This document shows positions 9,047 to 44,507 of a stretch of DNA of 64,000 nt, one piece after another. The notes under the pieces were generated by a model that was not told the DNA's origin, searched no databases, and worked only from the letters and a program-made list of their open reading frames with translations. Positions within the stretch are counted from its first letter, which is position 1, and each line of letters begins with the position of its first letter. Made by a program: the position numbers and the translations under genes. The stretch is from Cyanobacteria bacterium FACHB-502. Lineage in GTDB: Bacteria; Cyanobacteriota; Cyanobacteriia; Elainellales; Elainellaceae. The DNA lies in NCBI GenBank assembly GCA_014695325.1, contig JACJNZ010000039.1, forward strand, positions 558,001 to 622,000, given 5' to 3'.

Positions 9047-9050
9047 GTGT

Positions 9051-12614: not shown

Positions 12615-12932
12615 TTACAGCTTCACTTCAATGTCCACGCCTGCGGGCAGATCCAGCTTCATCAACGCATCGATCGTCTTAGATGAAGGCTGGTAAATGT
12701 CAATAATACGGCGGTGCGTCCGGGTTTCAAAGTGCTCCCGCGAGTCTTTGTCTACGTGCGGCGATCGCAGCAAGCAGTAAATCCGACGCTTCGTGGGGAG
12801 AGGAATTGGACCGATCGCAGTCGCATTGGTGCGGTTTGCCGTGTCTACAATCTTTTCGCAGGAAGTATCCAGTAAGCGGCGATCGAACGCCTTCAGTCGA
12901 ATCCGAATTTTTTGCTGTTGAATCGTTGCCAT
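12615..12932 (-). CDS. rpsJ: 30S ribosomal protein S10
   Basis: This 105-residue protein has [15 protein letters not shown] at the start, [29 protein letters not shown] (key part GPIPLPTKR) in the middle and RTHRRIIDI near the end, all diagnostic for S10 (NusE). It is the last gene of the str operon. The rpsJ position after tuf, rather than at the head of an S10 operon, is the usual cyanobacterial and plastid order. Besides its ribosomal role, S10 takes part in transcription antitermination. Confidence 0.98.
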
Positions 12933-13097
12933 GAGCGTTCCCGTTAAGTTGTCTAGGTTCAGTTTGTCGGTTCAATCTGGTTTAATCCAGAGAGGCGGCT
13001 TTGCAGCGTGTCGCCTGATCTAGTGTACTGCTTTATGGAAGTTTTGGAGAGGAGTTGTCTGAGCAGGTATTGCCACAGGATGGGTACACCCTGCATC

Positions 13098-13137
13098 GCC
13101 CCCTAAATCCCTCAATACTAGGGGAATGGGACTTTCA
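13098..13137 (+). repeat. Degenerate copy of CCCCCTAAATCC...GGGGGACTTT intergenic repeat
   Basis: GCCCCCTAAATCCCTCAATA is followed by CTAGGGGAATGGGACTTTCA, an inverted-repeat core ending in GACTTT. Related copies occur at 18221, 19759, 59153 and 59294. This resembles a small repeat common in many cyanobacterial genomes. Confidence 0.6.
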
Positions 13138-13153
13138 CGGCGTCAAAGAAGAA

Positions 13154-13182
13154 CAGCAGCCAGCCCAAAGACCAACTGCTGC
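13154..13182 (-). terminator. Weak hairpin downstream of tuf
   Basis: On the minus strand CAGCAG pairs with CTGCTG across a 17-base loop and is followed by TTCTTCTTT. It may slow or partly end transcription between tuf and rpsJ. Confidence 0.3.
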
Positions 13183-13224
13183 CCATGTTTTATTCAAACG
13201 ATTGCCCTAAGACTCAATCTTGAA

Positions 13225-14454: not shown

Positions 14455-14479
14455 GTATCTATCCGTTCCTCTTTACTGA

Positions 14480-16600: not shown

Positions 16601-16615
16601 AGCTACCTCCTTAGT
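16593..16615 (-). promoter_or_regulatory. Perfect Shine-Dalgarno fixing a GTG start for fusA
   Basis: On the minus strand AAGGAGGT is followed by AGCT-spaced bases and GTG. This decides the start codon over the ATG 48 bases upstream. Confidence 0.85.
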
Positions 16616-16863
16616 CTCTGCTGCATCTTTATGCTTAGCGACAAGCACTGTTAAGATTCTATACTTTTGTCCCTGGCTCTGTGTAGTTTCTGCGAACTCT
16701 CACGATTGCGGATTTCCAACCTTATTGGATGGGTATCCTCACCAATCGCAAGCGGCAAGTGATTCAGCTTAGTGAACTGGGCGGGCAAGATGCCTACTCC
16801 CCAGGAAACACTGCTGGTGCAAATCACTCGCCTGACTGCGATCGCAATCTCGCCAGAGCAAAT

Positions 16864-17334
16864 TTAGTAACGGTAGTGGGCGAACGCTTTGTTAGCTTCT
16901 GCCATCCGGTGGGTTTCTTCCCGCTTTTTGATTGTGCTGCCTGTTTCGTTAGCGGCATCCATCAGTTCGTTTGCCAGACGGCTTGCCATCGATTTGCCGG
17001 GACGCGCTCGGGAATAGGTCGTAAGCCAGCGCAGGGCCAGTGCCGTGCCGCGATCGGAGCGAACTTCCATCGGAACCTGATAAGTTGCACCACCCACCCG
17101 GCGAGCTTTCACTTCGACCAGGGGAGTGGCATTTTTGATTGCCCGCTCAAACACTTCAAGCGGTTCGTTGCCCGTGCGATCCTGAATAATCTTGAACGCA
17201 TCGTAAACAATTCGGTAAGAGATGGATTTCTTGCCGCTTCTCATCAGGCGGACGACCATCATATTAACGAGGCGGCTGTTGTGTACCGGATCGGGCGGAG
17301 TTGGGCGTTTTTGAACAGTTGTACGACGAGACAT
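16864..17334 (-). CDS. rpsG: 30S ribosomal protein S7
   Basis: This 156-residue protein starts [20 protein letters not shown] and contains [23 protein letters not shown] and the C-terminal [15 protein letters not shown], all standard for S7. It nucleates assembly of the 30S head by binding 16S rRNA. It is the second gene of the str operon. Confidence 0.99.
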
Positions 17335-17666
17335 AAGCTTTGACCTTGATCTTGCTTGACTTTGATTGCGGAGCCGCCCTTAAGGACAGCAGGTTTTTAG
17401 GTTTTTACAGGGAGTACAGTTTACCGAAGAAATACAGGAAACGCATCGCTTCGGCTGGTCTCCCCAATAGTTTTTTTGTCCGCTCAGCCGCATGAGCAGG
17501 AAATGGTCCCACACATTGCTTCAAGCAGCCCAGGCAATCAGGACTGCTTAAAGAGTCGAACGTTAAACAGTTAGAGCATAAAGCTGAGCAGTAGACTGCA
17601 GGCATTTGCAGAACTCAGATTGCTCAGCAGACAGCGACGAGACGCAGCGAAACATTGATGAACTAT
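17335..17666. other. Long spacer between rpsL and rpsG
   Basis: The spacer is 332 bases. A 66-codon minus-strand frame inside it looks like chance: it is Cys-rich, has no ribosome site and no family resemblance. No clear promoter or terminator is seen. Confidence 0.4.
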
Positions 17667-29989: not shown

Positions 29990-30949
29990 ATGCATAAAGT
30001 TAAGAAAACGCAGCAATCCTGGTTTCGATCGGCGCTGCGGCTGCGAGGATCGGTGATTCCGGCGGTTTTGCCGCGTACCTTGGTGTGTGGACTCTTTGCG
30101 ATCGGCGTTGTGCTGTTCGATCGATTGGGTTATCCAGTAGGTCTGCCTGTGTTAGCGGGCGTGATTCCAAATGTCGTCTTGGGGCTGATGCTGGTGTTTC
30201 GCACCAATACTGCCTACGAGCGGTTTTGGGAGGGACGGAAGCTGTGGGGCAGTCTTGTGAACGCCACTCGCAATTTGGCACGACAAATTTGGGTTTCGGT
30301 TATTGAAAAAGATCTGCAAGATCGCCAGAATAAGCAAATTATTTTGTCTTTGCTAGCTGGATTTTCAGTTGCAGTGAAGCGGCATCTGAGGCAGGAACCG
30401 GTAAATGAGGAGCTAGAAAAATTAGTGCCTCATTCGCAGTACTGCACGCTTAAAACACTGCATAATCCGCCGCTCGAAATTGCCTTCTGGATTCAGGATT
30501 ATTTGCAGTATCAATATCAGCGGGAATGCCTGAATGTCTATCAGTTTTCTCAGATGCAGCAGTCGCTCAATGCAATGGTAGATTGTCTGGGAGGCTGCGA
30601 ACGCATTTTGAAAACGCCCATGCCGCTGGCTTACGGAATTCACCTCAAGCAGGTTTTGCTACTTTATTCCCTGACGCTGCCATTTCAATTTGTGGCAGAG
30701 CTGCATGGATGGACAGTGGCGATCGTCATTTTAATTAGCTTCATTATGTTTGGGATCGAGGAAATTGGAATTGAGATTGAAAATCCTTTTGGTCACGACG
30801 CAAACGACTTACCGCTCGATAGCATTTGTGCCACCATCCAACAAAACATTGAGGAACTGATGCTGCTGGAGCCAAGCAGCGCCCTGCAAAGAAAGCGGCA
30901 TATTCCCCCTTTTCTAGAGCAAACTTCTCAGCGTGAAAGCGTGAGTTAA
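29990..30949 (+). CDS. Bestrophin-family anion channel
   Basis: This 319-residue protein begins after a basic stretch with WFRSALRLRGSVIPAVLPRTL. The family core GLMLVFRTNTAYERFWEGRKLWGSLVNATRNLARQ (key part FRTNTAYERFWEGR) lies around residue 65-100. Helical hydrophobic segments occur at 25-75 and 215-255, and PFQFVAELHGW plus IGIEIENPFG near the C-terminus are typical. Cyanobacterial and plant members are pentameric anion channels, thought to tune ion balance across the thylakoid. It follows carA by 37 bases and may share its transcript. Confidence 0.92.
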   Translation: MHKVKKTQQSWFRSALRLRGSVIPAVLPRTLVCGLFAIGVVLFDRLGYPVGLPVLAGVIPNVVLGLMLVFRTNTAYERFWEGRKLWGSLVNATRNLARQIWVSVIEKDLQDRQNKQIILSLLAGFSVAVKRHLRQEPVNEELEKLVPHSQYCTLKTLHNPPLEIAFWIQDYLQYQYQRECLNVYQFSQMQQSLNAMVDCLGGCERILKTPMPLAYGIHLKQVLLLYSLTLPFQFVAELHGWTVAIVILISFIMFGIEEIGIEIENPFGHDANDLPLDSICATIQQNIEELMLLEPSSALQRKRHIPPFLEQTSQRESVS

Positions 30950-31092
30950 CTTTAAGCTCAATCGAATTTGATGTAAGGAAATCGCTCGACGAAAAGGCTG
31001 AAGAAGAAGCATCTGCTGTTTGGTAGATAATTACTCCTTGCGAATAATTGCAAATGATTTCTATTAGATTACTGCAAAGTATTTTTTAATAG

Positions 31093-31122
31093 TTGACGGT
31101 TCGATAAACTCTCCTCTAGATT
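31093..31122 (+). promoter_or_regulatory. Candidate promoter of dps
   Basis: TTGACG at 31093-31098 and TAGATT at 31117-31122 are 18 bases apart, with the start codon about 100 bases downstream. Confidence 0.5.
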
Positions 31123-31225
31123 AAAGGCAAAGCAGGAATTATCAATGTTGAATCGTTGATCTTTCCTCACCCGGATAACAGCCAACGATAGCTAGCAGTT
31201 CTATCTGCTGAGAGAGGAAACTTAT

Positions 31226-31780
31226 ATGGTAACGATCGCATCCGCTATTCAAGCTTTCGACCAGGTTCGGGACAATCCAATCCTGCTGGAGAAAAACGTT
31301 ACCACAGCGATTTGTGAAGGACTAAATATCACTTTAGCGAGCTTTCAAGCCCTCTATTTGCAATATCAAAAGCATCATTTTGTGGTGGAAGGTGCAGAAT
31401 TTTATTCGCTGCATCAGTTCTTTGATGAGGCATACGGAAAAGTGCAGGATCACGTTCACGCCATTGGTGAGCGGCTCAACGGTCTGGGCGGCGTTCCAGC
31501 AGCAAGCTTCACCAAACTGGCAGAACTCTGCTGCTTCACTGTAGAACCGGACGGTATTTTCTCTTGTCGAGATATGGTTGTCCATGACTTAGCAGCAGAG
31601 CAGGCAATCATTGGAGTCATTCGGCAGCAGGCAGCTCAAGCAGAGAGTTTAGGCGATCGAGCCACGCGCCTGCTCTATGAGCAAATCTTGCTGCAAACCG
31701 AAGATCGAGCGTTCCACCTGGATCACTTCCTGGCGCATGACAGCCTGACTCCGGCATTTACGCTAGCGAGTGTCAATTAG
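31226..31780 (+). CDS. dps: Dps-family ferritin-like DNA/iron protection protein
   Basis: The 184-residue protein has GAGAGAGGAAA before the ATG. It has the Dps pattern [22 protein letters not shown] (key residues His, Asp and Glu of the inter-subunit ferroxidase site), then [17 protein letters not shown] and a long C-terminal helix with [21 protein letters not shown]. Dps dodecamers oxidise and store iron and detoxify peroxide. There is no Lys-rich N-tail, so DNA binding is uncertain. It probably forms its own unit, with the terminator at 31929. Confidence 0.88.
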
Positions 31781-31964: not shown

Positions 31965-32202
31965 GTAGAACCGGGATGCTCACACTTCATCCGATCGAGC
32001 GACTCATTCAGTTTGTACGACTGTAATTTGAACTACAATTTCCGACTGGGTCAGCAATCATAATGAGGCTGTTTGTTGTGATCACTACCGTTTATTGAAA
32101 AGGCAGATTAAGCGATCGAAAGGAATCTCAAAGTTAGGTAATTTCTGGCTTCCACAGATTAAAATTCCTTTGCTGCCAGGTTCTCAACTTTTCGCCTATG
32201 AT

Positions 32203-32583: not shown

Positions 32584-33876
32584 ATGAACAAGATGATTCG
32601 CTTGTTAGAGCAAATAGTTTCTCCGGTACGGTTTTATCTGCGTGGGTTCTGGCGCAGCGTTGCGCTGTTTTCCATTACGCTTGGCCTAATTGTCGGCTGC
32701 GGTACTTCTTCAAACTCCCCCACGGCAACCACTTCGAGTCCGGCGGCGGATGGTGCAGCGGCGGGGGGCGGTGATCCCTTTACGGTCGGGATGGTGCTGG
32801 TGGGTCCGCGCAACGATTCGGGTTGGAACCAGGCACACTACGACGGAATGCAGGAAGTTCTCCAAAGAATGCCCGACCTCAAGTTTGAGTATGTGGATAA
32901 GGTCAACCCTGCCGATCGCCCCAACATCACAGGCGCACAGGTTGCTGATGATCTGATTTCTAAAGGCGCAAAAATGGTCATCTTCAACTCGGATGACTTT
33001 AAAGACGATGCGCTGGAGACGGCAAAAAAGCATTCTGATGTGGCGGTCGTTCATGCGTCGGGCGACTATGCCTGGAAAGAGGGTCAGAACTTCAAGAATC
33101 AGCCGAACCTGGGTAATATCATGGGGCGGATGGAGTACGGCAAAATGATTGCAGGCTGTGCCGCTGCCCTGGGTTCCGAGAGCGGCAAGATCGGCTACGT
33201 TGGTCCGTTGATCAACGATGAAACTCGTCGATACACTTCCGCGGCTTATCTGGGCGCAAAGCACTGCTGGGAAAACTATCGCAACAAGGCAGCGGCTGAC
33301 CTGGATTTCAAAGTCACCTGGATCGGCTTCTGGTTTAACATTCCGGGTAAAACGCTCGACCCGACTAAAGTGGCAGATGACTATTACAACGGCGGCTACG
33401 ATGTGGTGATGTCGGGAATTGACACGCCCGAAGTGTCTGCCCAGGCGAAGAAAGCGGCGGAGGCAGGCAAAGCCGTGAAGTATGTCCACTACGACTTTAA
33501 GGGCGGCTGCGATCTGGCTCCTGATATCTGCTTAGGCGTGCCCTACTACAACTGGGGAATTCCTTATGAGACGGCGATCCAGAAAACGATGGGCGGTGAA
33601 ATGCCAAGTGAGTTTGTCTGGCTCGGTCCCGACTGGAAGGACATTAACGCCCCAGCCTCGATGATTGGCTTCCTGCCGGGGAACGCGCTAGGCGACCAGA
33701 AAGCCTCGCTGGACAAGTTCATTCAGGGCTTGGGCGATGGCAGCATTAACCCGTACAAGGGTCCGATTAAGCTCCAAGACGGCAGCACCTTTGTAGCAGA
33801 TGGTAAGACGGCAACCGATCAAGAGATTTGGTATATGCCCCAGCTATTAGAGGGAATGGAAGGAGCCAGCAAGTAA
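32584..33876 (+). CDS. BMP/PnrA-family substrate-binding lipoprotein
   Basis: From the ATG at 32584 the product is 430 residues, with a signal peptide and lipobox (LGLIVGC). A Ser/Thr/Ala/Gly linker follows, then the BMP fold: FTVGMVLVGPRNDSGWNQAHYDG, KMVIFNSDDFKDDAL, GRMEYGKMIAGCAAAL and GKIGYVGPLINDETRR. The family (BmpA/PnrA/Med) binds purine nucleosides and related compounds for ABC import. It heads a complete importer with the three genes downstream. A hairpin terminator right after the stop suggests it is made in excess of the membrane parts. Confidence 0.92.
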   Translation: MNKMIRLLEQIVSPVRFYLRGFWRSVALFSITLGLIVGCGTSSNSPTATTSSPAADGAAAGGGDPFTVGMVLVGPRNDSGWNQAHYDGMQEVLQRMPDLKFEYVDKVNPADRPNITGAQVADDLISKGAKMVIFNSDDFKDDALETAKKHSDVAVVHASGDYAWKEGQNFKNQPNLGNIMGRMEYGKMIAGCAAALGSESGKIGYVGPLINDETRRYTSAAYLGAKHCWENYRNKAAADLDFKVTWIGFWFNIPGKTLDPTKVADDYYNGGYDVVMSGIDTPEVSAQAKKAAEAGKAVKYVHYDFKGGCDLAPDICLGVPYYNWGIPYETAIQKTMGGEMPSEFVWLGPDWKDINAPASMIGFLPGNALGDQKASLDKFIQGLGDGSINPYKGPIKLQDGSTFVADGKTATDQEIWYMPQLLEGMEGASK

Positions 33877-33893
33877 ATCAGCTCATAATAAAG

Positions 33894-33934
33894 AAAGGGG
33901 GGTCAGACCAATGGCTGATCCCTTTGCCTTTTTT
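33894..33934 (+). terminator. Intra-operon terminator/attenuator after the binding-protein gene
   Basis: AGGGGGGTCAG pairs with CTGATCCCTTT (with G-U pairs) around an eight-base loop and is followed by GCC and six T. It lies between the binding protein and the ATPase gene of the same strand. Confidence 0.75.
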
Positions 33935-33973
33935 CTGCCGCCTTTCAGGAATTTGCCTCTTCAGGGATTTGCT

Positions 33974-35518
33974 ATGAGAGTTGAACTTCAGGACATCAGC
34001 AAGCGGTTCGGCACGGTTCAGGCAAACGATCGCATTTCGCTTACGGTCGAGGCAGGGAGCATCCACGGACTGCTGGGCGAAAACGGTGCGGGAAAAAGTA
34101 CACTGGTCAAGATTCTCAGCGGCTTTATCACCAAGGATTCCGGTCGATTGCTGCTGGACGGTAGGGAAACCGAGATTCGCACACCCGCCGATGCGATGAA
34201 GGTCGGAATCGGAATGCTGCACCAAGATCCGCTCGATTTTCCGCCCCTAAGCGTCCTGGAAAATTTTATGGTGGGCAAGTCGGGCAGTCTGCTAATGGCT
34301 CGATCGCGGGTCGTGCGGCAGTTTCGGGAGCTAGCAGCTCAATTTAATTTTGATTTGAATCTCTACGCCAAAGTGGGCAATCTTACCGTCGGCGAACGGC
34401 AGCAGCTTGAGATTTTGCGCTTGCTTTCACTGGGCGTGAATACGCTGATTTTGGATGAGCCAACAACTGGCATTTCGGCAGCCCAGAAAGACGCTTTGTT
34501 TGCAGCAGCGCGCAAGTTAGCAGACCAGGGTAAATCGGTGATTTTTGTATCGCACAAGCTCGAAGACGTGAATCAGTTGTGCGACCGCCTCACTGTGATG
34601 CGTCAGGGTCAGGTGGTGGGAAATTTGCCCGTGCCCTGTGCTGAGGCTGAGCTAATTAACCTGATCTTTGGACATGAACTGGCTCCTCCCGTCAAACCGC
34701 CGACCCAGCGAGACCAAATTGCCCTCGATCTGGAAAACGTGATGCTGATCAGCGATCGGCTTCAGATTCGGATCGATCGGCTCACGGTGAATCAGGGCGA
34801 GGTCGTTGGCTTAGCCGGGCTCGAAGGCAGCGGTCAACAGCTTTTGCTTCAGCTTTGCGCCGGACTGCTCAAAACGCCTACCGGACAAATTTGCGTTAAC
34901 GGACAAAACCTCACGCAGCAGCCTTATCCGGCGTATCTGAATGGGGGAATTGGCTACTCGCCCGCCGATCGCCTCCGAGAAGGACTGATTCCGGGTTTAA
35001 CCATTCAAGAGCACGTTGCCCTGCGGACTCCTGCGAAAAGCTGGTTTATTGATTGGAAAGACATTCTGGACAAAACCCAGCGATCGATCGCCCTGTTTAA
35101 CATTCGTGGCAAACCGAGCAGCACAGTCGAGCGGCTTTCCGGCGGCAACCAGCAGCGTACCCAGCTTTCGCTTTTACCTGTCCCGCTCAACCTCCTGTTA
35201 ATGGAACAGCCGACTCGCGGCTTGGATATTGAGTCTACGCTGTGGGTCTGGCAGCAGTTGATTGCCCGATGCGAAGGCGGCACAACGATCTTGTTTACCT
35301 CTTCCGATCTCGATGAGATTATGCAGTACAGCGATCGGGTGATTGTATTCAGCAGTGGGAAAATGTCTCAGCCGATTGATGCTTCACAGTTGACAGTCGA
35401 TCGCCTGGGACAGATGATTGGCGGTCGATTTGATGCGCTGCTCAACGCAGATAGCCCGCCTGATTACCCTACACCGGAAATTGCAAAGCAATCGACCAAG
35501 CAAAACGTCATGGGTTAG
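33974..35518 (+). CDS. Nucleoside-type ABC transporter ATPase with two ABC domains
   Basis: A 514-residue product is read from the ATG at 33974 (MRVELQDISKRFGTVQAND); an upstream in-frame ATG lies inside the terminator hairpin. Domain 1 has GLLGENGAGKSTL, LTVGERQQLEI and LILDEPTTG. Domain 2 has a degenerate P-loop (GLAGLEGSGQQ), LSGGNQQRTQLS and LLMEQPTRGLD. This duplicated arrangement with a changed second site is typical of YufO/RbsA-like ATPases that partner BMP-type binding proteins. It energises uptake through the two permeases that follow. Confidence 0.92.
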   Translation: MRVELQDISKRFGTVQANDRISLTVEAGSIHGLLGENGAGKSTLVKILSGFITKDSGRLLLDGRETEIRTPADAMKVGIGMLHQDPLDFPPLSVLENFMVGKSGSLLMARSRVVRQFRELAAQFNFDLNLYAKVGNLTVGERQQLEILRLLSLGVNTLILDEPTTGISAAQKDALFAAARKLADQGKSVIFVSHKLEDVNQLCDRLTVMRQGQVVGNLPVPCAEAELINLIFGHELAPPVKPPTQRDQIALDLENVMLISDRLQIRIDRLTVNQGEVVGLAGLEGSGQQLLLQLCAGLLKTPTGQICVNGQNLTQQPYPAYLNGGIGYSPADRLREGLIPGLTIQEHVALRTPAKSWFIDWKDILDKTQRSIALFNIRGKPSSTVERLSGGNQQRTQLSLLPVPLNLLLMEQPTRGLDIESTLWVWQQLIARCEGGTTILFTSSDLDEIMQYSDRVIVFSSGKMSQPIDASQLTVDRLGQMIGGRFDALLNADSPPDYPTPEIAKQSTKQNVMG

Positions 35519-35535
35519 TTTCCCATCTTCTCGCC

Positions 35536-36579
35536 ATGCCCAAACTTTCTCAATCGACTGTTTATCAAGCCAGCGCGATCGTTTTATCGCTGCTGTTTAT
35601 TGCCGTTGTCATTGTTCTGGTGGGCGGTTCTCCGATCGAGGTGCTGACGAATATGTTTTCTGGGGCATTTAGCACTTCTGATCAGGTTGCGCGGGTCGTG
35701 ATGACGCTGGTTCCGCTCGTGCTTTGCACCTGTGGACTGCTGTTTACCTTCACGGCTGGGCTGTATAACCTGGGCATTGAGGGACAGATTTCCTTCGGGG
35801 CGATCGCCTCCATGGTTCCGATTCAATTGTTTCAGGATGTGCTGCCGCCGTTTGTGGTGATTGTGCTGGCAATTGGGGCAGGCATTGTGGGCGGGGCATT
35901 GTGGGGACTGCTGACAGGCATCCTCAACGTCTACGGGCGCATCAATGAAATCTTTGCCGGACTAGGACTTAACTTTGTCGCCGACGGGCTGGCAATTTAT
36001 CTGATTTTTGGTCCCTGGAAACGTCCGGGCGTTGCCTCCATGAGCGGCACAGAGCAGTTTAGCGAATCCCTCTGGCTACCTACCTTTGGCAGCACAGGAG
36101 CAAGTCCGATCGCCTTAATTCTGGCTCTGCTGGTGCTGGCAGCGACGATCGTGGTCATGCGCGGTACTTACTTCGGGCTGAAGCTCAAAGCGGTGGGTCA
36201 AAACCTGCGAGCCTCCTACGTTCTCGGCATCCCATCCATTCAGCAGCTTTTGAGCGCGTTTGCGATTTGCGGAGCCTGTGCCGGACTCGCGGGCGCATTG
36301 CAGGTGCTTGCCGTCTTCCATCGCTTGATTCCCACCGTTTCCAGCAATCTGGGCTATTTGTCGCTGCTGATCGCCATGCTCATCGGCTCGAATGCGTGGC
36401 TGATTCTCCCGATCGGCTTTTTCTTCAGTGCCCTCAACATTGGCAGCCTTCAACTTCCCCTCGCGCTCGATCTAGAATCCTCTCTCTCCGGCGTCATCCA
36501 GGGCACGATCGTTCTCTTCGCCCTCCTGGGACGGGGCTTCAGCCAGCGCAAACAATCGCCTACGCAACCCACAAGCTAA
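35536..36579 (+). CDS. ABC transporter permease (nucleoside uptake, first subunit)
   Basis: This 347-residue protein has eight to ten hydrophobic helices and the BPD_transp_2 family features FTFTAGLYNLGIEGQISFGAIAS (key part AGLYNLGIEGQ) and RGTYFGLKLKAVGQNLRASYVLGI (key part GLKLKAVGQN, the ATPase-contact loop). It is YufP-like. It starts 18 bases after the ATPase stop and would pair with the next permease. Confidence 0.9.
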   Translation: MPKLSQSTVYQASAIVLSLLFIAVVIVLVGGSPIEVLTNMFSGAFSTSDQVARVVMTLVPLVLCTCGLLFTFTAGLYNLGIEGQISFGAIASMVPIQLFQDVLPPFVVIVLAIGAGIVGGALWGLLTGILNVYGRINEIFAGLGLNFVADGLAIYLIFGPWKRPGVASMSGTEQFSESLWLPTFGSTGASPIALILALLVLAATIVVMRGTYFGLKLKAVGQNLRASYVLGIPSIQQLLSAFAICGACAGLAGALQVLAVFHRLIPTVSSNLGYLSLLIAMLIGSNAWLILPIGFFFSALNIGSLQLPLALDLESSLSGVIQGTIVLFALLGRGFSQRKQSPTQPTS

Positions 36580-36632
36580 CCCAAAAATTTGCGGCGATGG
36601 GCACGTCAGGACACCCACTCCACAAGATCCTG

Positions 36633-36698
36633 AATCCTATTCCCTGCTCCTCCCATTTCCCCGTCCCCTCACCCTTCCACTCATCCCCTCTCTACCCG
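36633..36698 (+). repeat. Pyrimidine-rich low-complexity leader tract
   Basis: The stretch is almost entirely C and T (for example CCCCGTCCCCTCACCCTTCC) and runs up to the start codon of the second permease. Similar tracts occur at 28676, 47414 (minus strand sense) and 53036. Confidence 0.6.
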
Positions 36699-36699
36699 C

Positions 36700-37692
36700 A
36701 TGACTCCTGCCCAAATCATCGCCATTCTCGCCGTCGCGATCGCTACCTCCACGCCCCTGATTTTTGCTGCCGTTGGCGAAACGATTACCGAACGGGCTGG
36801 CGTCATCAACCTCTCTGCTGAAGGAACCATTTTGCTTTCAGCCATGGTCGGCTTTGCAGTCGCGAAAACCACTGAAGGAATGGGTACAGTGCCCTGCTTG
36901 CTGCTGGGATTTGGGGCGGCGGCGATTACGGGGGCAGCGATCGCGCTCATCGTGGCTTTTGGGGCACTGACGCTTCAGCAATCTCAGGTGGCGATCGGGT
37001 TTGTGCTGGCATTGCTCTGTGCCGATTTGTCTTCGTTTTTGGGCAACCCGTTTGTGCGAATTCCGGGGCCGGTTGTGCCCAGTTTCAAGCTGCCGCTGCT
37101 GCAAAATATTCCGCTCTTGGGACCGCTTTTGTTTCAAAGCGATTTGCTCGTGTATTGCAGCTATCTGCTGATTATTGGCACGGCGTTTTTCTTTTATCGC
37201 ACCCGTCCAGGACTGATGCTAAGGGCGATCGGCGAACAGCCTGCAGCGGCATTTGTGCGCGGAACGAATGTGGTGCTGATGCGCTATCTTTATACCCTGT
37301 TGGGCGGCGCGTTGATGGGCATTGCCGGAGCAGCGTTTTCGCTCGACTTCAAAGCGGGCTGGAGTCATCGGCATACCGCAGGCTATGGCTGGATTGTATT
37401 GGCGATCGTCATTTTCGGCGGCTGGAATCCGTTACGGGCTGCGTTTGGCTGCTATCTGTTTGGCATTCTCCAATCTTTAGCCAGCGTTGCCCAAAGTGCG
37501 TTACCCAACGTTCCCACGCAGGTTCTCACCGTTGCTCCATTTGTATTGATGATTTTATTCCTCGTATTGACTTCGAGTGAATGGCTCGAACGTCTCCTCA
37601 AACGTCTTCCGCCTGCTGTCAGTCGATCGATCGGGCAAATGATTCACAGTACGCCGCCTGCCGCCTTGGGACGGGTGTTTCAGCAGGATTAA
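36700..37692 (+). CDS. ABC transporter permease (nucleoside uptake, second subunit)
   Basis: This 330-residue protein resembles YufQ. It has GETITERAGVINLSAEGTILLSA near the start (key part GVINLSAEG), an internal RTRPGLMLRAIGEQPAAAF cytoplasmic loop, and multiple hydrophobic helices. It completes the importer. It follows the first permease by 120 bases, of which about 65 are a pyrimidine tract. It lies 24 bases before the Rieske oxygenase gene, which implies co-transcription with that gene. Confidence 0.9.
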   Translation: MTPAQIIAILAVAIATSTPLIFAAVGETITERAGVINLSAEGTILLSAMVGFAVAKTTEGMGTVPCLLLGFGAAAITGAAIALIVAFGALTLQQSQVAIGFVLALLCADLSSFLGNPFVRIPGPVVPSFKLPLLQNIPLLGPLLFQSDLLVYCSYLLIIGTAFFFYRTRPGLMLRAIGEQPAAAFVRGTNVVLMRYLYTLLGGALMGIAGAAFSLDFKAGWSHRHTAGYGWIVLAIVIFGGWNPLRAAFGCYLFGILQSLASVAQSALPNVPTQVLTVAPFVLMILFLVLTSSEWLERLLKRLPPAVSRSIGQMIHSTPPAALGRVFQQD

Positions 37693-37716
37693 ACAGGGTT
37701 AAATAGGAGGAACACG

Positions 37717-38718
37717 ATGCAGCAAACTGTTCAGCAGAAAGCTCTAGCGGATTCTGTGATCTGGAATGACTGGTATGGGGTTGCCCGTTCCGTCGATCTT
37801 CAGCCGGGGGTTCTCGTTCCTGTGCGTCTTTTGGATGCCAATGTGGTACTTTGGCGGACTGAATCGGGTGAGGTTTGTGCCTGGGACGATCGCTGTCCCC
37901 ATCGCAGTGTGCAGCTCTCTCAGGGAAAAATTGTCGATGATCGCGTCATTTGCAGCTATCACGGGTTAGCCTATGCCCCGGACGGTCGATGTGTTGATGT
38001 GCCTGCTCATCCAGATTACATTCCGCCCAAGCAAGCCTGCGTTCGCCGCTATGCCGTGCAGGAAAAATATGGACTGGTGTTTGTTTCTCTAGGAGAACCG
38101 CAGCAGGAGATTCCCGACTTTGCTGAGTGGCATGATCCGGCGTACGGTCGCGTGATTACTGGACCTCATCCCTGTAGCGCGAACGGCTATCGGGCGATCG
38201 AAAACTTCCTCGACGTGGCGCATTTCTCCTTTGTGCATGAGGGCATTTTGGGCAGCCGCGAAAAGCCGGAAGTGGGAGATTACCAGGTGACGATCGATCA
38301 GTCTGGCGTGTGGCTCCACGACATTCGCTACTGGCAGCCCGACCCCGACGGTACAGGGCAGGGTGCGTTTGTGCAGTATGACTACTGGGCACTGCGTCCA
38401 CTCGTTGCCGTGCTGCGAAAGACAATGCCAAATGGACATTTGCTCAATATTTTCTACTTTGTTACACCGGTCAGCGAAGTTGAGATGATTGGCTGGATGT
38501 GCCTCACGTTCAACTTCAAAGAAGAAATGGATGAAGCTGCCGCCCAAGCATTTCAGGAAAAAGTTTTTGCTCAAGATGGTGCAAACCTGGAATCCCACTC
38601 GCCTCAACAATTGCCGCTCTATACCCCGCAGCTCGAATTTCATTTGCCCTGCGATCGAGGGTCGCTTGCCTATCGCAAATGGCTCAAACAGTTAGGCGTT
38701 ACTTATGGCACGATCTGA
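37717..38718 (+). CDS. Rieske non-haem iron oxygenase (VanA/PaO-like)
   Basis: This 333-residue protein has AGGAGG just ahead of the ATG. The Rieske cluster ligands are Cys60-Pro-His62 and Cys79-x2-His82 (CPHRS and CSYHG). The mononuclear iron site follows the N-x2-D-x2-H-x4-H pattern in NFLDVAHFSFVHEG (Asp166, His169, His174). The size and single-chain form resemble oxygenase subunits that demethylate or hydroxylate aromatic or heterocyclic compounds. A reductase or ferredoxin partner is not adjacent; photosynthetic ferredoxin could serve. Because it is tied to a nucleoside-type importer, a modified purine or nucleoside is a reasonable guess at the substrate, but this is inference. Confidence 0.9.
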   Translation: MQQTVQQKALADSVIWNDWYGVARSVDLQPGVLVPVRLLDANVVLWRTESGEVCAWDDRCPHRSVQLSQGKIVDDRVICSYHGLAYAPDGRCVDVPAHPDYIPPKQACVRRYAVQEKYGLVFVSLGEPQQEIPDFAEWHDPAYGRVITGPHPCSANGYRAIENFLDVAHFSFVHEGILGSREKPEVGDYQVTIDQSGVWLHDIRYWQPDPDGTGQGAFVQYDYWALRPLVAVLRKTMPNGHLLNIFYFVTPVSEVEMIGWMCLTFNFKEEMDEAAAQAFQEKVFAQDGANLESHSPQQLPLYTPQLEFHLPCDRGSLAYRKWLKQLGVTYGTI

Positions 38719-38751
38719 TCTAATAACGTATTAATTTGAGTTAGAAATTCT

Positions 38752-39114
38752 ATGTTTCAGCGCATTGTTGAACTGATGTATTTTGTACCCGATCGTCATG
38801 AAGCAACCGCTTGGTATGCCAAACTATTTGATGCTCCCATCACCTATCTCGATCATCCCGATCATTTTTTTGTGTTGGTGGGTGATCAGGAAATCTGGTT
38901 TAGTGAAGCCGATCGCAAAGTCTCTGCCGGAACTGCCGGGCAGGTCGCTTACTGGCGTGTTGACTGTTTCGATACTGCACTGGAAAAAGCGATGCAAATG
39001 GGTGCAGTTTTATATCGCGGTCCGCTCGATCGCGGCGATGGAAGCTGGATGTGCCAGGTCAAAGATCCGTTTGGCAATTTGTTAGGTTTCTTTGGGACTC
39101 GACGCAGCGAGTAA
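38752..39114 (+). CDS. VOC-superfamily (glyoxalase/dioxygenase-fold) protein
   Basis: This 120-residue protein has VELMYFVPDRHEATAWYAKLF at the start, matching VOC domains. The end is KDPFGNLLGFFG, the usual last strand, where a metal-ligand Glu would often be found; here the position reads LGFF, so metal binding is uncertain. It follows the Rieske gene by 33 bases and probably works with it, for example on the oxidised product. The reaction is not known. Confidence 0.8.
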   Translation: MFQRIVELMYFVPDRHEATAWYAKLFDAPITYLDHPDHFFVLVGDQEIWFSEADRKVSAGTAGQVAYWRVDCFDTALEKAMQMGAVLYRGPLDRGDGSWMCQVKDPFGNLLGFFGTRRSE

Positions 39115-39478: not shown

Positions 39479-41005
39479 TTATGCACCAACTGCTTCTTTT
39501 GCAGCATATAAAACCTCAGCCGTAATCGATTCAATTCCTCGATCGCGGGCAAACTTTTCGGTATTTCGCTTCACTTTGCCGCGCACAAATCCGGGAATTT
39601 TATTCAGTTCGGCTAAGCCATCTTTGCTCCAGTTGAGGTCAGATTCTGCCGACATGCCTTTGGTAATCACTTCTTTGGTATCGTGACCGCCAAAGATTTC
39701 CAGCAGGTGATCTTCCATGCCCAACGTGAAGGAGTTATACACCAGATCCACAAGCTGGTTTGCGCCTTCATAGCCCACGTACGGACGATAGCCAACCGGG
39801 AAGTTCTGAATATGAATCGGAGCCGCAATCACGCCGCAGGGAATATCCAGACGCTTGCCGACGTGGCGTTCCATTTGCGTTCCAAAAATGGCGGCAGGTT
39901 CTAAACGGGCGATCGCATTTCCGATTTCGGCGTTATCTTCGCTGATTAAGATTTCATCACAGTATTCGCTGACCTGTTCCCTAAACCATTCCGCATCGTA
40001 TTTACAGTACGTTCCCGCCAGCACAACGCGAATGCCCATTTCTCTTGCCAAAACTTTCGTTAAAGCAGCCGCGTGCGTATTGTCGCCAAACACGACCGCT
40101 TTTTTTCCAGTCAGGTTCTGACAGTCGATCGATCGCGAAAACCAGACCGCCTGCGACACAAATCGCGTTTGCTCATCGATAAAGGGTTCGTAATCTGCGC
40201 TGTGCCCTTGTGCGTTGACAATTTGCTGAATTGCCCGAATGCACCGTGCCGTTTCTACGACACCCATCGGCGTGATATCCACAAACGGAGTACCAAACTG
40301 CGCCTGCAAATATTCAGCGGTCATCAAGCCCAGTTCACGATAGGGTAGCAGGTTAAACCAGGCGCGCGGCAGGGTTTTCAGCTCATGCACCGAAGCCTGG
40401 TCAGGAATCACGACATTCACCTCAATGCCCAGATCGCCCATCAGCTTTCGCAGTTCGCGGCAGTCGTGCTGATTGTGGAAGCCCAGGGTTGAGATACCGA
40501 TGATATTCACCGAAGGTTTCTCGGTTTTGTCGGTGATCAGTTCACCTTTTTTGCGAGCTTTGTCGATGTAGAACCGAACGATTTGCTGAAGCGTACGATC
40601 GGCTGCCTGAAGCTCATTGAAGCGATAGTGATTCACATCCGCCAGCAGCACATCGCCTTTTGCCTCGATCTGGGCACGCTCGACAAAGTTTTGCAAGTCT
40701 TCCTGAAGAATGCTGGAGGTGCAGGTTGGCGTCAGCACAATCAGATCGGGGTGCTCTTCGGCATCTTTGCGTGTGATGTTGTCCACCACTTTTTCCTGCG
40801 ATCCCCGCGCTAATACATGGCGATCGACCACGCTTGTCGTCACGGGCGTAAAGTCGCGCTCTCGCTCCAGCATGGAACGCATGACGTTAAAATAATCGTC
40901 CCCCAGAGGCGCGTGCATGATGGCATGAACGTTTTTAAAGGAGCTGGCAATGCGTAGCGTGCCAATGTGAGCGGGTCCGGCATACATCCAGTAAGCCAAT
41001 TTCAT
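39479..41005 (-). CDS. chlB: Light-independent protochlorophyllide reductase subunit B
   Basis: The 508-residue protein starts [20 protein letters not shown] and contains the cluster Cys in [54 protein letters not shown] and [20 protein letters not shown] (key part [10 protein letters not shown]) follow. With ChlN it forms the nitrogenase-like catalytic component that reduces protochlorophyllide in the dark, fed by ChlL. ChlL and ChlN are not nearby, which is normal in many cyanobacteria. It is transcribed alone, with its own terminator. Confidence 0.98.
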
Positions 41006-41381
41006 AAACCGAAAATCTCCGTATGCTGAGGGTCTTCACTCGACAAGGCAACGAGGCTGAGGATCAAGGTTGAAGCTGTTCTTGATTGTCTCAAACCTAC
41101 GGCAAACTGGGGAAAGCACTTCTGCAGATGCTTCACATATTTTGGCGTGGAAACGATCGCTCAAACTGTTCTCCTGGTTCGGCTGCGGCGTTTTACATGT
41201 GGGGAGAAGGAGGGCGATCGGGCAATAATTCTTGATGCTTCGTTACCGATTTTCAGAGATTGCTAGCAGAGTCGGGATTAACATCGATTCGAGTGAGGCA
41301 GAGCGTAAACCGACCCTTTGTTAGAGGTCGATCGCCTTACTCAACCTTTAGCCTGAAAGAGCCGTGTCCTAAAATTTCCTC
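41006..41381. other. Divergent region between chlB and a small membrane gene
   Basis: No gene is supported in these 376 bases. They should contain the chlB promoter and leader. I cannot point to a specific operator. Confidence 0.4.
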
Positions 41382-41549
41382 ATGAATCCGATCGTTACAG
41401 TGATTTTGCTGGCTCTGATTCTGGTTACGATCGTCTCTCCATTAGCTGCGCTTGCACCCTTGATGCTGATTGCAGCGTTTAGCGTACTGGCTTGGATGGG
41501 CTGGACGATTATTCGCGCCTTTTTTACGGGAGAAGTTGAGGGACGTTAG
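41382..41549 (+). CDS. Very small membrane protein
   Basis: This 55-residue frame starts at ATG 41382. The product is almost wholly hydrophobic (MNPIVTVILLALILVTIVSP, then LAPLMLIAAFSVLAWMGWTI) and ends IRAFFTGEVEGR. It probably forms two short membrane helices. I do not recognise the family, but the composition and clean ends favour a real gene. Confidence 0.55.
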   Translation: MNPIVTVILLALILVTIVSPLAALAPLMLIAAFSVLAWMGWTIIRAFFTGEVEGR

Positions 41550-41619
41550 CAGCTATCGGGAATCGCTCTCTAACTAAAAAGCTCTCTAAGAAGGGGCTAG
41601 GGATGAGGACAAATCTCAC

Positions 41620-41655
41620 TCACAAAATTAGAACTGATCACAAAATTAAAACCGG
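41620..41655. repeat. 18-bp imperfect tandem duplication
   Basis: TCACAAAATTAGAACTGA is followed by TCACAAAATTAAAACCGG. Confidence 0.7.
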
Positions 41656-41801
41656 ATAGATGCAGTTTTCTGGCATCCCTTTTAGGATGGAGAGTGATCG
41701 GTTAGATCAGGCGTTCTAGTCTTTTAACGTGCCCAAAATAGGCATTTTCCAGGCTGGAGCGTCTATGGTCTAATGATCATCGTGTCGCCTATCCTCCTTC
41801 C

Positions 41802-44507
41802 ATGACGGACTCTGCATCTCCCGATTTCTCAGAACTCACCAAAGATATTCCCGATCGCCTGATTAAGTATGCCGTGCGCTACGCCAACCATCGGGCAGTG
41901 AATCGGAATGATCTGACTCCGATGATTCGGCACTATGTCGAGATGAAGGATCAGTATCCACACGCGCTGCTGCTGTATCGGGTGGGCGATTTTTTTGAGA
42001 CGTTTTTTCAGGATGCGATCGTTGTTGCCCGCGAACTGGAACTCTTGCTGACTGCAAAAGATGCGGGGCAAAAAATTGGTAAAGTTCCTTTGGCAGGTAT
42101 TCCCCATCATGCGCTCGATCGCTACTGTGCCTTACTTGTCGAGCGGGGCTATGCAGTAGCAGTGTGTGACCAAACCGAGGATGCCGAAGAAGCGCAGGGG
42201 CGATTAGTGCAGCGGGAAGTCACCCGCGTGATTACGCCGGGCACTGTTCTGGAAGAAGGAATGCTAAACGCGCGGCGCAATAACTTTCTGGCAGCAGTGG
42301 TGATTGCCGGAAATCACTGGGGGTTAGCGATCGCTGATATCTCAACCGGTGAATTTTTGACGACGCAGGCAAGCGAACTCGAACAGCTCACTCAGGAACT
42401 CATGCGGCTTCAGCCCTCAGAAGTGCTGGTTCCCACCAACGCGCCGGATCTAGGCGAACTGCTGCGACCAGGCGAAAAATCTTCTCATTTGCCAGAATGT
42501 CTACCGCCTCAGTTTTGCTACACGCTGCGCCCCCAAACGCCTTTTACCCTGACCGAAGCTCGCCAGCGGATTCTGGAACGGTTCCGGGTTCGATCGCTGG
42601 AAGGCATGGGCTGTGAGCATCTGGCACTCGCAGTTCGGGCAGCAGGCGGATTATTGGAATATTTGGAAGACACTTCTGAGCGCAAGTTTGGCGAAGCTCA
42701 GGCGCAAAAAGTTCTGCTTCAGCCGCTCTGCACTTATACGATCACGGAATTTTTGACGATCGATCATCAGACTCGGCGCAATCTAGAAATTACTCAAACC
42801 GTGCGGGACGGAACCTTTCACGGGTCGCTGCTGTGGGCGATCGATAAAACGGTCACGGCAATGGGAAGTCGGGCACTGCGTCGCTGGCTGCTTCAGCCGC
42901 TGCTAGACATTGGGGCGATCGAGGCGCGACAGGACACAATTCAGGAACTGATCGAAGACGGATCGCTGCGGCAGTCGCTTCAGCATCTACTCAAGCAGAT
43001 TTATGACCTGGAACGCTTGACCGGACGCGCCGGATCAGGAACGGCAAATGCGCGGGATCTGATGGCACTGGCAGATTCGCTCGATCGTCTTCCCGATCTG
43101 GCAAGCCTTGTGAAGTCGGCAAAGTCTCCTTATCTGGTTGCGCTGCAAACCGTGCCCGATATTTTGCAGGAGTTAGGCGGCAAGCTGAAAGCACACCTGA
43201 AGGAAAATCCGCCAATCCACTTGCAGGACGGTCAGCTCATTCGCGATGGCGTCAACGAAGACCTCGATCGCCTGCGGCAGCAAATCGACACCGATCAGAA
43301 ATGGATCGCGGAACTGGAGACGATCGAGCGAGAACGCACTGGAATTCCGACGCTGAAGGTGAGCTTCAACAAAACCTTTGGCTATTACATCAGCATCTCC
43401 AAGGCAAAAGCAGGCGAAAAAGTGCCGGAGGGCTACACGCGCAAGCAAACGTTGACCAATGAGGAACGCTACATCACGCTGGAGCTAAAGGACAAAGAAA
43501 CCGCGCTGCAAATTGCGAAGGATCAGGCAAACAAGTTGGAATACGACCTGTTTGTCAAACTCCGATCGACTGTCAGCGATCAGGCAGCTCCAATTCGGCA
43601 GGTGGCGCAGGCAATTGCGGCGATCGATGCCCTTTGTTCTCTGGCAGAAATTGCGGCGTTTCGCGGCTATGTGCGTCCCCAGATCGTGCCCACTCGTGAA
43701 TTGACGATCGCAGCCGGTCGGCATCCGGTGGTCGAGCAATCGCTTCCGGCAGGATTCTTTGTGCCGAATTCGACGGAAATGGGAGGCGGAAAAGGCGAAA
43801 CTGCGCCAGATCTGATTGTGCTGACAGGCCCAAACGCGAGCGGCAAGAGCTGCTATTTGCGACAGGTGGGGCTGATTCAGCTTTTGGCACAGGTAGGAAG
43901 CTTTGTTCCGGCAAATGGGGCGACGCTGGGCGTATGCGATCGCATCTTTACCCGTGTGGGTGCAGTCGATGACCTGGCAACCGGACAATCGACCTTTATG
44001 GTGGAAATGAACGAAACGGCAAATATTCTCAATCATGCCACGGCGCATTCGCTGGTGCTGCTGGATGAAATCGGCCGGGGAACGGCGACATTTGATGGAC
44101 TGTCGATCGCCTGGGCAGTGGCGGAACACTTAGCCAGCGAGCTTCGCGCCCGCACAATTTTTGCCACCCACTATCACGAGCTCAATGAGCTTGCCTCAAT
44201 TCTGCCGAACGTTGCCAACTATCAGGTGACGGTGAAGGAGCTGCCGGATCAAATCATCTTCCTGCATCAAGTACGTCCTGGTGGAGCCGATCGCTCCTAT
44301 GGCATCGAAGCCGGACGACTCGCCGGACTGCCTGCCTCGGTGATCGATCGTGCCCGTCAGGTGATGACGCAGATCGAGAAGCATTCCCGGATTGCGGTGG
44401 GTCTACGGCAGGGAACACTGCCCAAAGCAGACCGAAAGGCGCAGGAGCGCAATGGTCACTATCGAACGGTGGCTGAGCCGAGTGAACAGCTTGATATTTT
44501 TGGTTGA
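41802..44507 (+). CDS. mutS: DNA mismatch repair protein MutS
   Basis: The 901-residue protein is slightly longer than the usual 850-880 because of an N-terminal extension before [20 protein letters not shown]. The mismatch-binding Phe-x-Glu is in GDFFETFF. The ATPase has [15 protein letters not shown] (Walker A, in the form common in cyanobacteria) and [16 protein letters not shown] (Walker B), then [12 protein letters not shown]. It recognises mismatches. MutL is not in the window. It is transcribed on its own. Confidence 0.97.

What the first reader, a model, noticed from the sequence alone, without database searches (positions are those of the whole stretch)
32584..39114. BMP/PnrA-type importer co-linear with a Rieske oxygenase and a VOC protein: candidate uptake-and-oxidation pathway
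Seen: six plus-strand genes with short gaps (binding lipoprotein, double ATPase, two permeases, Rieske oxygenase, VOC protein); the second permease and the Rieske gene are 24 bp apart, and the Rieske and VOC genes 33 bp apart. Known: BMP/PnrA importers bind purine nucleosides and relatives, and single-chain Rieske oxygenases of this size demethylate or hydroxylate aromatic or N-heterocyclic compounds. Inference: the cluster imports a (methylated) purine, nucleoside or similar heterocycle and oxidises it, with the VOC protein acting on the product. I know of no described cyanobacterial pathway with this set.
Basis: partly seen in the sequence, partly recalled or inferred. Interest (0 to 1): 0.62.

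Follow-up and report, generated by a model that had tools for sequence, protein, structure and literature searches.

The report
Purine importer with linked Rieske oxygenase
A cyanobacterium carries a purine-type importer directly followed by an iron-sulphur oxygenase, a pairing that recurs in other bacteria next to purine-breakdown genes, so it probably scavenges a modified purine as a nitrogen source.

Summary
The six genes are real and lie where stated. The first five (binding lipoprotein, double ATPase, two permeases, Rieske oxygenase) form a unit found elsewhere. The VOC gene does not belong to it: a close homologue occurs in only 2 of 386 cyanobacterial genomes, the window's own included.

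The purine reading is well supported. The binding protein's best sequence and fold matches are guanine-binding AtzT and its relative 3s99. In one cyanobacterium (G296) the same operon lies beside a deaminase and xanthine dehydrogenase genes. Diverged Rieske-BMP clusters in proteobacteria carry nucleobase-type deaminases and xanthine dehydrogenase. Rieske subgroup, binding protein and deaminase each co-occur with xanthine dehydrogenase. NtcA-like sites suggest nitrogen control.

The Rieske protein's nearest solved relatives are the saxitoxin-tailoring enzymes SxtT/SxtDIOX, then methylxanthine demethylase NdmA. It lacks two SxtT substrate contacts and branches apart from that clade.

Best explanation: import of a modified, probably N-methylated, aminopurine, oxidative dealkylation, then deamination and oxidation via xanthine and urate. 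Substrate and dealkylation are inferred. Verdict: a new variant of a known kind.

The parts
32023..32064 (+). NtcA-like promoter candidate: GTA-N8-TAC (32023-32036), 22 nt, then CATAAT (32059-32064)
   Evidence: One of 3 exact GTAN8TAC copies in the 64-kb window; -10-like box at 22 nt. 547 nt upstream of the BMP ATG, so the link is weak; NtcA consensus recalled.
32584..33876 (+). BMP/PnrA-family binding lipoprotein, AtzT-like subgroup
   Evidence: Pfam Bmp 3.1e-12; PDB 3s99 6e-21 and AtzT 1e-15; AF2 model pLDDT 84; best folds 3s99/AtzT Z about 36 against 31 or less for nucleoside binders. Lipobox LIVGC by inspection.
33896..33925 (+). Terminator-like hairpin between binding-protein and ATPase genes (possible attenuator)
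   Evidence: 11-pair stem followed by T-rich tail; 17 such sites found in the region against 9.4 expected
33911..35518 (+). Double ABC ATPase (sugar/nucleoside importer type); start may be 33974
   Evidence: ABC_tran, two stretches; 70% identical in G296
35536..36579 (+). ABC permease 1
   Evidence: BPD_transp_2; 73% identical in G296
36700..37692 (+). ABC permease 2
   Evidence: BPD_transp_2; 85% identical in G296
37717..38718 (+). Rieske non-heme iron oxygenase (Rieske + VanA_C); C60/H62/C79/H82 cluster ligands, H169/H174/D287 iron ligands, D166 bridge
   Evidence: Pfam; PDB SxtT/SxtDIOX 1e-68, NdmA 1e-31; motifs invariant in an 18-sequence alignment; K235 and F279-Q280 in 18 of 18 BMP-linked homologues tested
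38752..39114 (+). VOC-fold protein: adjacent, but not a conserved member of the unit
   Evidence: Pfam Glyoxalase 6e-7; 2 of 386 genomes at E<=1e-10

Best explanation
This is a nitrogen-scavenging unit for a modified aminopurine. The BMP lipoprotein binds a free purine base, most likely guanine-like and carrying an extra small substituent such as N-methyl, and the ATPase and two permeases import it. The Rieske oxygenase, fed electrons by a ferredoxin or reductase encoded elsewhere, hydroxylates the substituent and so dealkylates the purine (releasing formaldehyde in the methyl case). The bare base is then deaminated by a cytidine-deaminase-fold deaminase and oxidised by xanthine dehydrogenase and HpxO urate hydroxylase, whose genes lie elsewhere in this genome. 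Shown by computation: the genes, their families, the recurring clustering with deaminase and xanthine dehydrogenase genes in other genomes, and the co-occurrence. Inferred: the substrate, the dealkylation, the deaminase's substrate, the electron donor and the nitrogen-source role. The VOC protein is taken to be a lineage-specific neighbour.
For: Conserved unit: BMP-ATPase-permease-permease-Rieske in G296 (67/70/73/85/54% identity); a different BMP transporter followed by the Rieske gene in G289 and on Leptolyngbya boryana plasmid pLBX. Purine neighbours: in G296 the operon has a CDA-fold deaminase directly upstream and, about 1.7 kb from the Rieske gene in convergent orientation, xdhA and xdhB (above curated cut-off) with an XdhC-like gene (below). 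Named genome loci: BMP in the DNA held around the Rieske hit in 21 of 45 (all 21 proteobacterial, 10 of them Gluconacetobacter); CDA or amidohydrolase deaminases in 9 of 45 (L039, L044, L046, L047, L048, L054, L058, L059, L071; 7 of these also have BMP); xdh genes in L048, L049, L054, L058; 8-oxoguanine deaminase above cut-off on a Paracoccus plasmid; adenosine deaminase above cut-off in L054. Window genome: xdhA, xdhB, HpxO and OHCU decarboxylase above cut-off plus an XdhC-like gene, and a 64% orthologue of the G296 deaminase. Co-occurrence with xdh (19 of 386): close Rieske 4 of 5 (p 2e-5), window-type BMP 6 of 10 (1e-6), deaminase 5 of 5 (2e-7). Binding-protein fold nearest to AtzT/3s99; AtzT was crystallised with guanine, KD about 110 nM (PMC6834077, passages). 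Window W81, W250, S136, E213 correspond to its Tyr45, Trp194, Ser97, Glu165 (my mapping). TadA-type purine deaminases, a purine ABC permease and xanthine dehydrogenase are described together in SAR11 (PMC11698098, passages). Exact NtcA-like sites within 700 bp upstream in 6 of 10 window-type BMP genes (p 3e-5; 5 of 9, p 2e-4, without a near-duplicate) and in the xdh/hpxO intergenic region.
Against: No direct evidence for a methyl group or any substrate. The nearest named NCBIfam models of the ATPase and permeases are a putative vitamin B6 transporter, though far below cut-off (332 of 670, 113 of 400, 142 of 465 bits). The CDA-fold deaminases match solved proteins labelled CMP/dCMP deaminase best; guanine deaminase comes lower. 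Close Rieske homologues L034, L079 and L081 have no BMP gene in the DNA held; L034's three scanned neighbours (threonine synthase, YfmF-type, XPB helicase) have no purine link and L081 has a ProV-like ATPase nearby. Of 10 window-type BMP genes 4 head a contiguous transporter operon, 1 is split by an insertion and 5 have no transporter gene in the DNA held; only 2 are next to the Rieske gene. No reductase is adjacent in the window or G296. In the window itself no deaminase or xdh gene is adjacent. More distant Rieske homologues do not follow xdh (2 of 16, p 0.18). Relatedness of genomes inflates the p-values. Two of six AtzT side-chain contacts are not kept. With a 450-bp limit, NtcA-like sites were seen in 3 of 8 window-type genes tested; the 700-bp limit was chosen later, and the background came from whole loci, coding DNA included.
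Confidence: 0.5

Rival explanations
1. The Rieske enzyme hydroxylates the purine ring itself (for example C8 of guanine or a related base) instead of removing a substituent; the product is then deaminated as an 8-oxopurine.
For: 8-oxoguanine-deaminase-family gene beside the pair on the Paracoccus plasmid (above cut-off) and an amidohydrolase 60% identical to it in Noviherbaspirillum massiliense; the closest solved relatives SxtT/GxtA hydroxylate ring C-H positions (PMC7293229, passages).
Against: Xanthine dehydrogenase is beside the pair in several loci and can already hydroxylate purine rings (recalled), so a second ring hydroxylase would be redundant; L054 carries an adenosine deaminase instead.
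Confidence: 0.2
2. Methylxanthine (purine alkaloid) catabolism of the NdmA/NdmB/NdmCDE kind: the substrate is a plant-type methylxanthine.
For: NdmA is the next structural relative; alphaproteobacterial clusters have a split Rieske/oxygenase pair plus a GST-like protein, as in NdmCDE, where NdmC lacks the Rieske cluster and NdmE is GST-like (PMC4408171, passages).
Against: Xanthines lack an exocyclic amino group, so the recurrent deaminases would have no role; no NdmD-type reductase is adjacent in the window; NdmA's E-value is about 37 orders of magnitude weaker than SxtT's.
Confidence: 0.12
3. Co-linearity only: the Rieske gene is transcribed with the transporter but acts on an unrelated substrate, and the purine links elsewhere reflect the transporter.
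For: Some close homologues sit without any BMP importer in the DNA held (L034, L079, L081).
Against: The Rieske family is paired with at least two different BMP transporter subfamilies in cyanobacteria and with others in alpha-, beta- and gammaproteobacteria; Rieske presence itself tracks xdh (4 of 5).
Confidence: 0.14
4. Biosynthetic tailoring of a guanidine alkaloid of the saxitoxin kind.
For: Best PDB matches are SxtT and SxtDIOX, 1e-68.
Against: Two substrate contacts named for SxtT and GxtA (PMC7293229, passages) are not kept in the window protein or its clade, whichever of two slightly different alignments is used; the tree separates the sxt-type pair (100/100) from the window clade (100/99); the neighbours are an importer and, in relatives, purine-catabolism genes. 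The whole genome was not searched for sxt genes.
Confidence: 0.04

Closest known systems
AtzT (PDB 6pi5) and 3s99, BMP-family binding proteins
   Same: Best sequence and fold matches of the binding protein; two stacking aromatics plus a serine and a glutamate of AtzT's guanine pocket kept or conservatively replaced. Ligand of 3s99 recalled as adenine, not seen in a call.
   Different: About 24-27% identity; Asn218 and Asn220 of AtzT are glycine and aspartate here, which may leave room for a different or larger ligand.
NdmA/NdmB methylxanthine N-demethylases and the NdmCDE N7-demethylase complex
   Same: Homologous Rieske oxygenases; alphaproteobacterial versions of this cluster have an NdmC-like Rieske-less subunit and an NdmE-like GST. 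PMC4408171 (passages) reports ndmCDE homologues of unknown function, many in Sinorhizobium and Mesorhizobium.
   Different: Here a BMP importer and, in relatives, deaminases and xanthine dehydrogenase accompany the oxygenase; no fused NdmD reductase; activity unknown.
SxtT and GxtA (SxtDIOX) Rieske hydroxylases
   Same: Closest solved relatives (1e-68), same length.
   Different: 36-38% identity to the sxt-type pair of genome G153, separate clade, two substrate contacts not kept, catabolic neighbourhood in relatives.
PnrA / BmpD nucleoside importers
   Same: Same transporter family and gene set.
   Different: Fold match weaker (Z 31 or less against 36).

Membership tests
BMP/PnrA-type ABC importer | Bmp-fold lipoprotein, double ATPase and two BPD_transp_2 permeases in one operon | tested here: met
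BMP/PnrA-type ABC importer | Binding and transport of purine nucleobases or nucleosides | not testable with these tools
   Only pocket and fold similarity to AtzT
Rieske non-heme iron oxygenase | C-x-H / C-x2-H cluster ligands, 2-His-1-carboxylate iron site and bridging Asp | tested here: met
   C60, H62, C79, H82, D166, H169, H174, D287 invariant in 18 aligned sequences
NdmA/NdmB-type purine N-demethylase | Sequence placement with NdmA/NdmB above other Rieske enzymes | tested here: inconclusive
   NdmA comes after SxtT and SxtDIOX; NdmA/NdmB were not in the tree
NdmA/NdmB-type purine N-demethylase | Demonstrated N-demethylation | not testable with these tools
   No assay possible
NdmCDE-type N7-demethylase (alphaproteobacterial relatives only) | Rieske-less oxygenase subunit, GST-like partner, Rieske domain on another protein | tested here: met
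   R. etli p42c; Paracoccus by annotation. Not met by the window protein, which is fused
NdmCDE-type N7-demethylase (alphaproteobacterial relatives only) | The missing Rieske domain is fused to the reductase (NdmD) | tested here: not met
   R. etli Rieske protein is 213 aa with a Rieske domain only; Paracoccus has a separate VanB-type reductase gene
Saxitoxin-tailoring Rieske hydroxylase | Guanidinium-contact residues shared by SxtT and GxtA | tested here: not met
   Contacts from PMC7293229 mapped
Saxitoxin-tailoring Rieske hydroxylase | Branches within the Sxt clade | tested here: not met
   Tree; sxt identity of the reference pair rests, which checked one of the two
Pao/CAO pigment oxygenase | PaO-type C-terminal domain | tested here: not met
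   Pfam gave VanA_C and, just above its cut-off, KshA_C; no PaO model at E<=0.001 (that Pfam holds a PaO model is recalled)
Purine catabolic gene cluster | Linkage to xanthine dehydrogenase and a nucleobase deaminase | tested here: met
   Met in G296 and several proteobacteria; in the window genome the same genes exist but unlinked

The most novel reading that the evidence does not exclude
A widespread, undescribed bacterial pathway scavenges methylated guanine-type bases (such as 7-methylguanine from RNA turnover) with a dedicated BMP importer and a Rieske N-demethylase feeding deaminase and xanthine dehydrogenase. The saxitoxin-tailoring oxygenases of cyanobacteria are an offshoot of this purine-handling enzyme family, recruited to a purine-like scaffold.
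Probability: 0.25. Interest if true: 0.75.

Novelty: new variant of a known kind. Interest (0 to 1): 0.55.

Why it matters
If true it explains what a broad class of Rieske oxygenases does, probably including the ndmCDE homologues that a 2015 review listed as of unknown function (PMC4408171, passages). It would give cyanobacteria and plant-associated proteobacteria a route to nitrogen in modified purines, and a catabolic family from which the SxtT/GxtA hydroxylases could have arisen. It also yields a directly testable substrate set: free methylated purine bases.

Tried and rejected
VOC as pathway enzyme: rejected as a conserved part. Nucleoside (PnrA-like) binding: less likely from fold ranking. 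Vitamin B6 transport: the NCBIfam models nearest to the ATPase and permeases, but far below cut-off. Sxt-type function: see rivals. Pigment (Pao/CAO) function: no domain match. NCBIfam's best model for the Rieske protein (4beta-methylsterol monooxygenase) was far below cut-off, 76 of 600 bits. The promoter scan was uninformative: 8 sites against 5.6 expected. The NtcA pattern with one mismatch is not enriched in the window: 119 against 107 expected.

Literature (held PubMed Central library only): no paper joined 7-methylguanine with Rieske (0 papers), or BMP family, Rieske, purine and ABC transporter. Searches gave listings; opened, as passages only, were PMC4408171, PMC7293229, PMC6834077 and PMC11698098. 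PMC11698098 has no occurrence of Rieske or BMP in its main text. No paper giving the NdmA/NdmB pocket residues was found. Structure prediction of the Rieske protein was not done.

Rows dropped or not examined. Of 391 plasmid records with a Rieske match I opened 7: 3 had a BMP transporter beside it (L. boryana, R. etli, Paracoccus) and 4 did not (Pantoea, Mycetohabitans, Rhodococcus, Nostoc). Of 45 named loci 24 showed no BMP hit, among them all 8 cyanobacterial ones and 7 partial matches to another Rieske group (L072-L078); some loci are cut short by contig ends. The ten window-type BMP genes were picked from the list by their low Pfam scores and then confirmed by 54-68% identity; most other Bmp genes of that list were not compared. 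L138 and L140 end inside or soon after the transporter genes. The tree used 46 sequences that I selected, without the split proteins. The residue check included 6 split proteins; nine further Gluconacetobacter ones were left out. Of four loci of the second Rieske subgroup (L095-L098) I scanned neighbours of two.
Full report
What is there. The window, from a 6.6-Mb genome of 100 contigs, carries six plus-strand genes at 32584-39114 as described: BMP lipoprotein, double ABC ATPase, two permeases, Rieske oxygenase, VOC protein; the Pfam assignments are above cut-off. A protochlorophyllide reductase subunit gene follows on the minus strand, and three contigs of the phylum sample have the same lengths as contigs of named cyanobacteria, so the host is taken to be a cyanobacterium. 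The permease-Rieske gap is 24 bp with an AGGAGG ribosome site and the Rieske-VOC gap is 33 bp; the two permeases are 120 bp apart. A terminator-like hairpin lies between the BMP and ATPase genes, which would suit excess expression of the binding protein (inference).

Is it more than one genome's accident? In 386 genomes the Rieske query matched 21 at E<=1e-40, in 25 places. Five places are at least 54% identical: the window, G060, G296, G011 and G289. Three of these five lie directly downstream of a BMP-type transporter; chance for three or more within 10 kb is about 8e-6 if genes were scattered at random. G296 has the same transporter (BMP 67%, ATPase 70%, permeases 73% and 85%). G289, and Leptolyngbya boryana plasmid pLBX, have a different BMP transporter (binding protein about 20% identical to the window's) in the same order before the Rieske gene. 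So at least two transporter subfamilies are paired with it. Among 45 named loci 21 have a BMP gene in the DNA held, all proteobacterial: Noviherbaspirillum, Herminiimonas, other beta- and gammaproteobacteria, Asaia, Rhodobacteraceae, Tabrizicola, and ten Gluconacetobacter that should count as one. None of the 8 cyanobacterial loci in that set has one. A VOC homologue is found in only 2 of 386 genomes.

What the neighbours say. In G296 a CDA-fold deaminase lies directly upstream of the BMP gene, and xdhA and xdhB (above curated cut-offs) with an XdhC-like gene lie about 1.7 kb beyond the Rieske gene, in convergent orientation. G133 has the same deaminase next to a window-type BMP gene. In Noviherbaspirillum humi (L048) and Herminiimonas (L044) the order is ATPase-permease-permease-BMP-CDA deaminase-Rieske, with xdh genes alongside in L048; Herminiimonas L049 has transporter, Rieske and xdh but no CDA hit. 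N. massiliense (L039) has an amidohydrolase 60% identical to the Paracoccus 8-oxoguanine deaminase, BMP, CDA deaminase and Rieske. L046 and L047 have the CDA deaminase and Rieske without a BMP hit. L054 has xdh on one side and an adenosine deaminase above cut-off on the other. In R. etli p42c and Paracoccus the oxygenase is split into a Rieske protein and a separate oxygenase subunit, followed by a GST-like protein, with an amidohydrolase of the 8-oxoguanine deaminase family (above cut-off in Paracoccus, below in R. etli) and the BMP transporter. This split resembles NdmC/NdmE, where NdmC lacks a Rieske cluster and NdmE is GST-like (PMC4408171, passages). The CDA-fold deaminases match solved CMP/dCMP-labelled deaminases and TadA as well as guanine deaminase, so their base is not settled; TadA-type genes are called purine deaminases beside xanthine dehydrogenase in SAR11 (PMC11698098, passages). 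The window genome has xdhA, xdhB, an XdhC-like gene, HpxO and OHCU decarboxylase together on another contig and a 64% orthologue of the G296 deaminase elsewhere.

Co-occurrence. Xanthine dehydrogenase (TIGR02965, E<=1e-150) is rare in this sample: 19 of 386, 18 above the family cut-off. It is present in 4 of 5 genomes with the close Rieske, 6 of 10 with the window-type BMP protein and 5 of 5 with the deaminase (p 2e-5, 1e-6 and 2e-7). More distant Rieske homologues do not track it (2 of 16, p 0.18). Relatedness is not corrected for.

The binding protein. By sequence its solved relatives are 3s99 and AtzT; by fold, from a confident model (pLDDT 84), the same two stand above the nucleoside binders (Z 36 against 31 or less). 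AtzT was found with guanine bound and binds it at about 110 nM (PMC6834077, passages). Mapping its side-chain contacts through the alignment (a five-residue numbering offset makes the named residues fit) gives W81 for Tyr45, W250 for Trp194, S136 for Ser97 and E213 for Glu165, kept or conservative, while Asn218 and Asn220 become G278 and D280, which are constant in all ten window-type proteins. A glycine there could leave room for a substituent; that is inference.

The oxygenase. All iron and cluster ligands are present. Its best solved relatives are SxtT and SxtDIOX, then NdmA. A tree of 46 selected homologues puts the window in a seven-row cyanobacterial clade (100/99) that holds all four cyanobacterial BMP-linked proteins; the sxt-type pair from genome G153 sits in a separate supported clade within the wider cyanobacterial group. 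Two substrate contacts shared by SxtT and GxtA (PMC7293229, passages) are not kept; the alignments differ by one column at one of them, with the same outcome. Instead K235 and F279-Q280 are present in 18 of 18 BMP-linked oxygenases tested, six split ones included, and absent from the sxt pair. They also occur in homologues without an adjacent BMP gene, so they mark a subgroup and not the linkage. Members of another Rieske subgroup lie beside a guanine deaminase in G289 and a cytosine deaminase in G011, both above cut-off (two of four such loci scanned), again a nucleobase context.

Regulation. Exact GTA-N8-TAC sites occur within 700 bp upstream of 6 of 10 window-type BMP genes against 0.079 expected each (p 3e-5; 5 of 9, p 2e-4 without a near-duplicate) and in the xdh/hpxO intergenic region of the window genome. 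A first look with 450 bp had found 3 of 8, so the limit was widened after looking. The window's own site is 547 nt upstream with a CATAAT box 22 nt below it. This suggests nitrogen control by NtcA (consensus recalled) but does not show it.

Mechanism proposed. Import of a free modified aminopurine, oxidative removal of its substituent by the Rieske enzyme, deamination, then xanthine dehydrogenase and HpxO. Handling of a purine-type ligand is well supported (my estimate 0.8); N-dealkylation rests on family and on the argument that ring hydroxylation would duplicate xanthine dehydrogenase (about 0.5 overall). 7-Methylguanine is my favoured candidate because it is a common RNA breakdown product (recalled) and the split relatives resemble an N7-demethylase, but nothing here singles it out.

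Counter-evidence. L034, L079 (G060) and L081 (G011) are close homologues without a BMP importer nearby; G060 has both parts on separate contigs; five of ten window-type BMP genes have no transporter genes beside them; no reductase gene is adjacent in the window; the nearest named models of the ATPase and permeases are a putative B6 transporter, below cut-off.

Verdict. It is a new variant of a known kind: known transporter and oxygenase families joined in a purine-linked unit for which I found no description in the held library.

Noticed in passing
L098 (G289) 9561-12248, minus strand: A Rieske paralogue of a second subgroup lies next to a guanine deaminase above curated cut-off; in G011 (L097) the same subgroup is downstream of a cytosine deaminase above cut-off.
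   Followed up: partly
L080 (G296) 8626-9054, plus strand: A fragment about 70% identical to part of the window ATPase lies between the XdhC-like gene and the Rieske gene, outside the operon's own ATPase gene: a duplicated or broken remnant.
   Followed up: no
L140 (G133) 11329-17657: About 6.3 kb, including a 1014-aa ORF, separates the window-type BMP gene from the ATPase gene: an insertion into the operon.
   Followed up: no
L137, L139, L141, L142, L143: Window-type BMP proteins encoded without transporter genes in the DNA held: apparent orphan binding proteins in five genomes.
   Followed up: partly
L061-L070 (Gluconacetobacter): Split oxygenase whose Rieske-domain gene lies several kb away on the opposite strand from the catalytic subunit, with the BMP operon between them.
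   Followed up: no
window genome, G000:C49:4326-5705: Two tandem Rieske genes of a distant subgroup.
   Followed up: no
window 29990-31780 and 39479-44507: Neighbours are a bestrophin-family gene, a DpsA gene, a protochlorophyllide reductase subunit gene on the minus strand and a mutS-like ORF (the last named by inspection); no purine gene among them.
   Followed up: partly
window genome, G000:C52:141-6991: XdhC-like, xdhB, xdhA facing hpxO and OHCU decarboxylase, with an exact palindromic NtcA-like site between them.
   Followed up: yes
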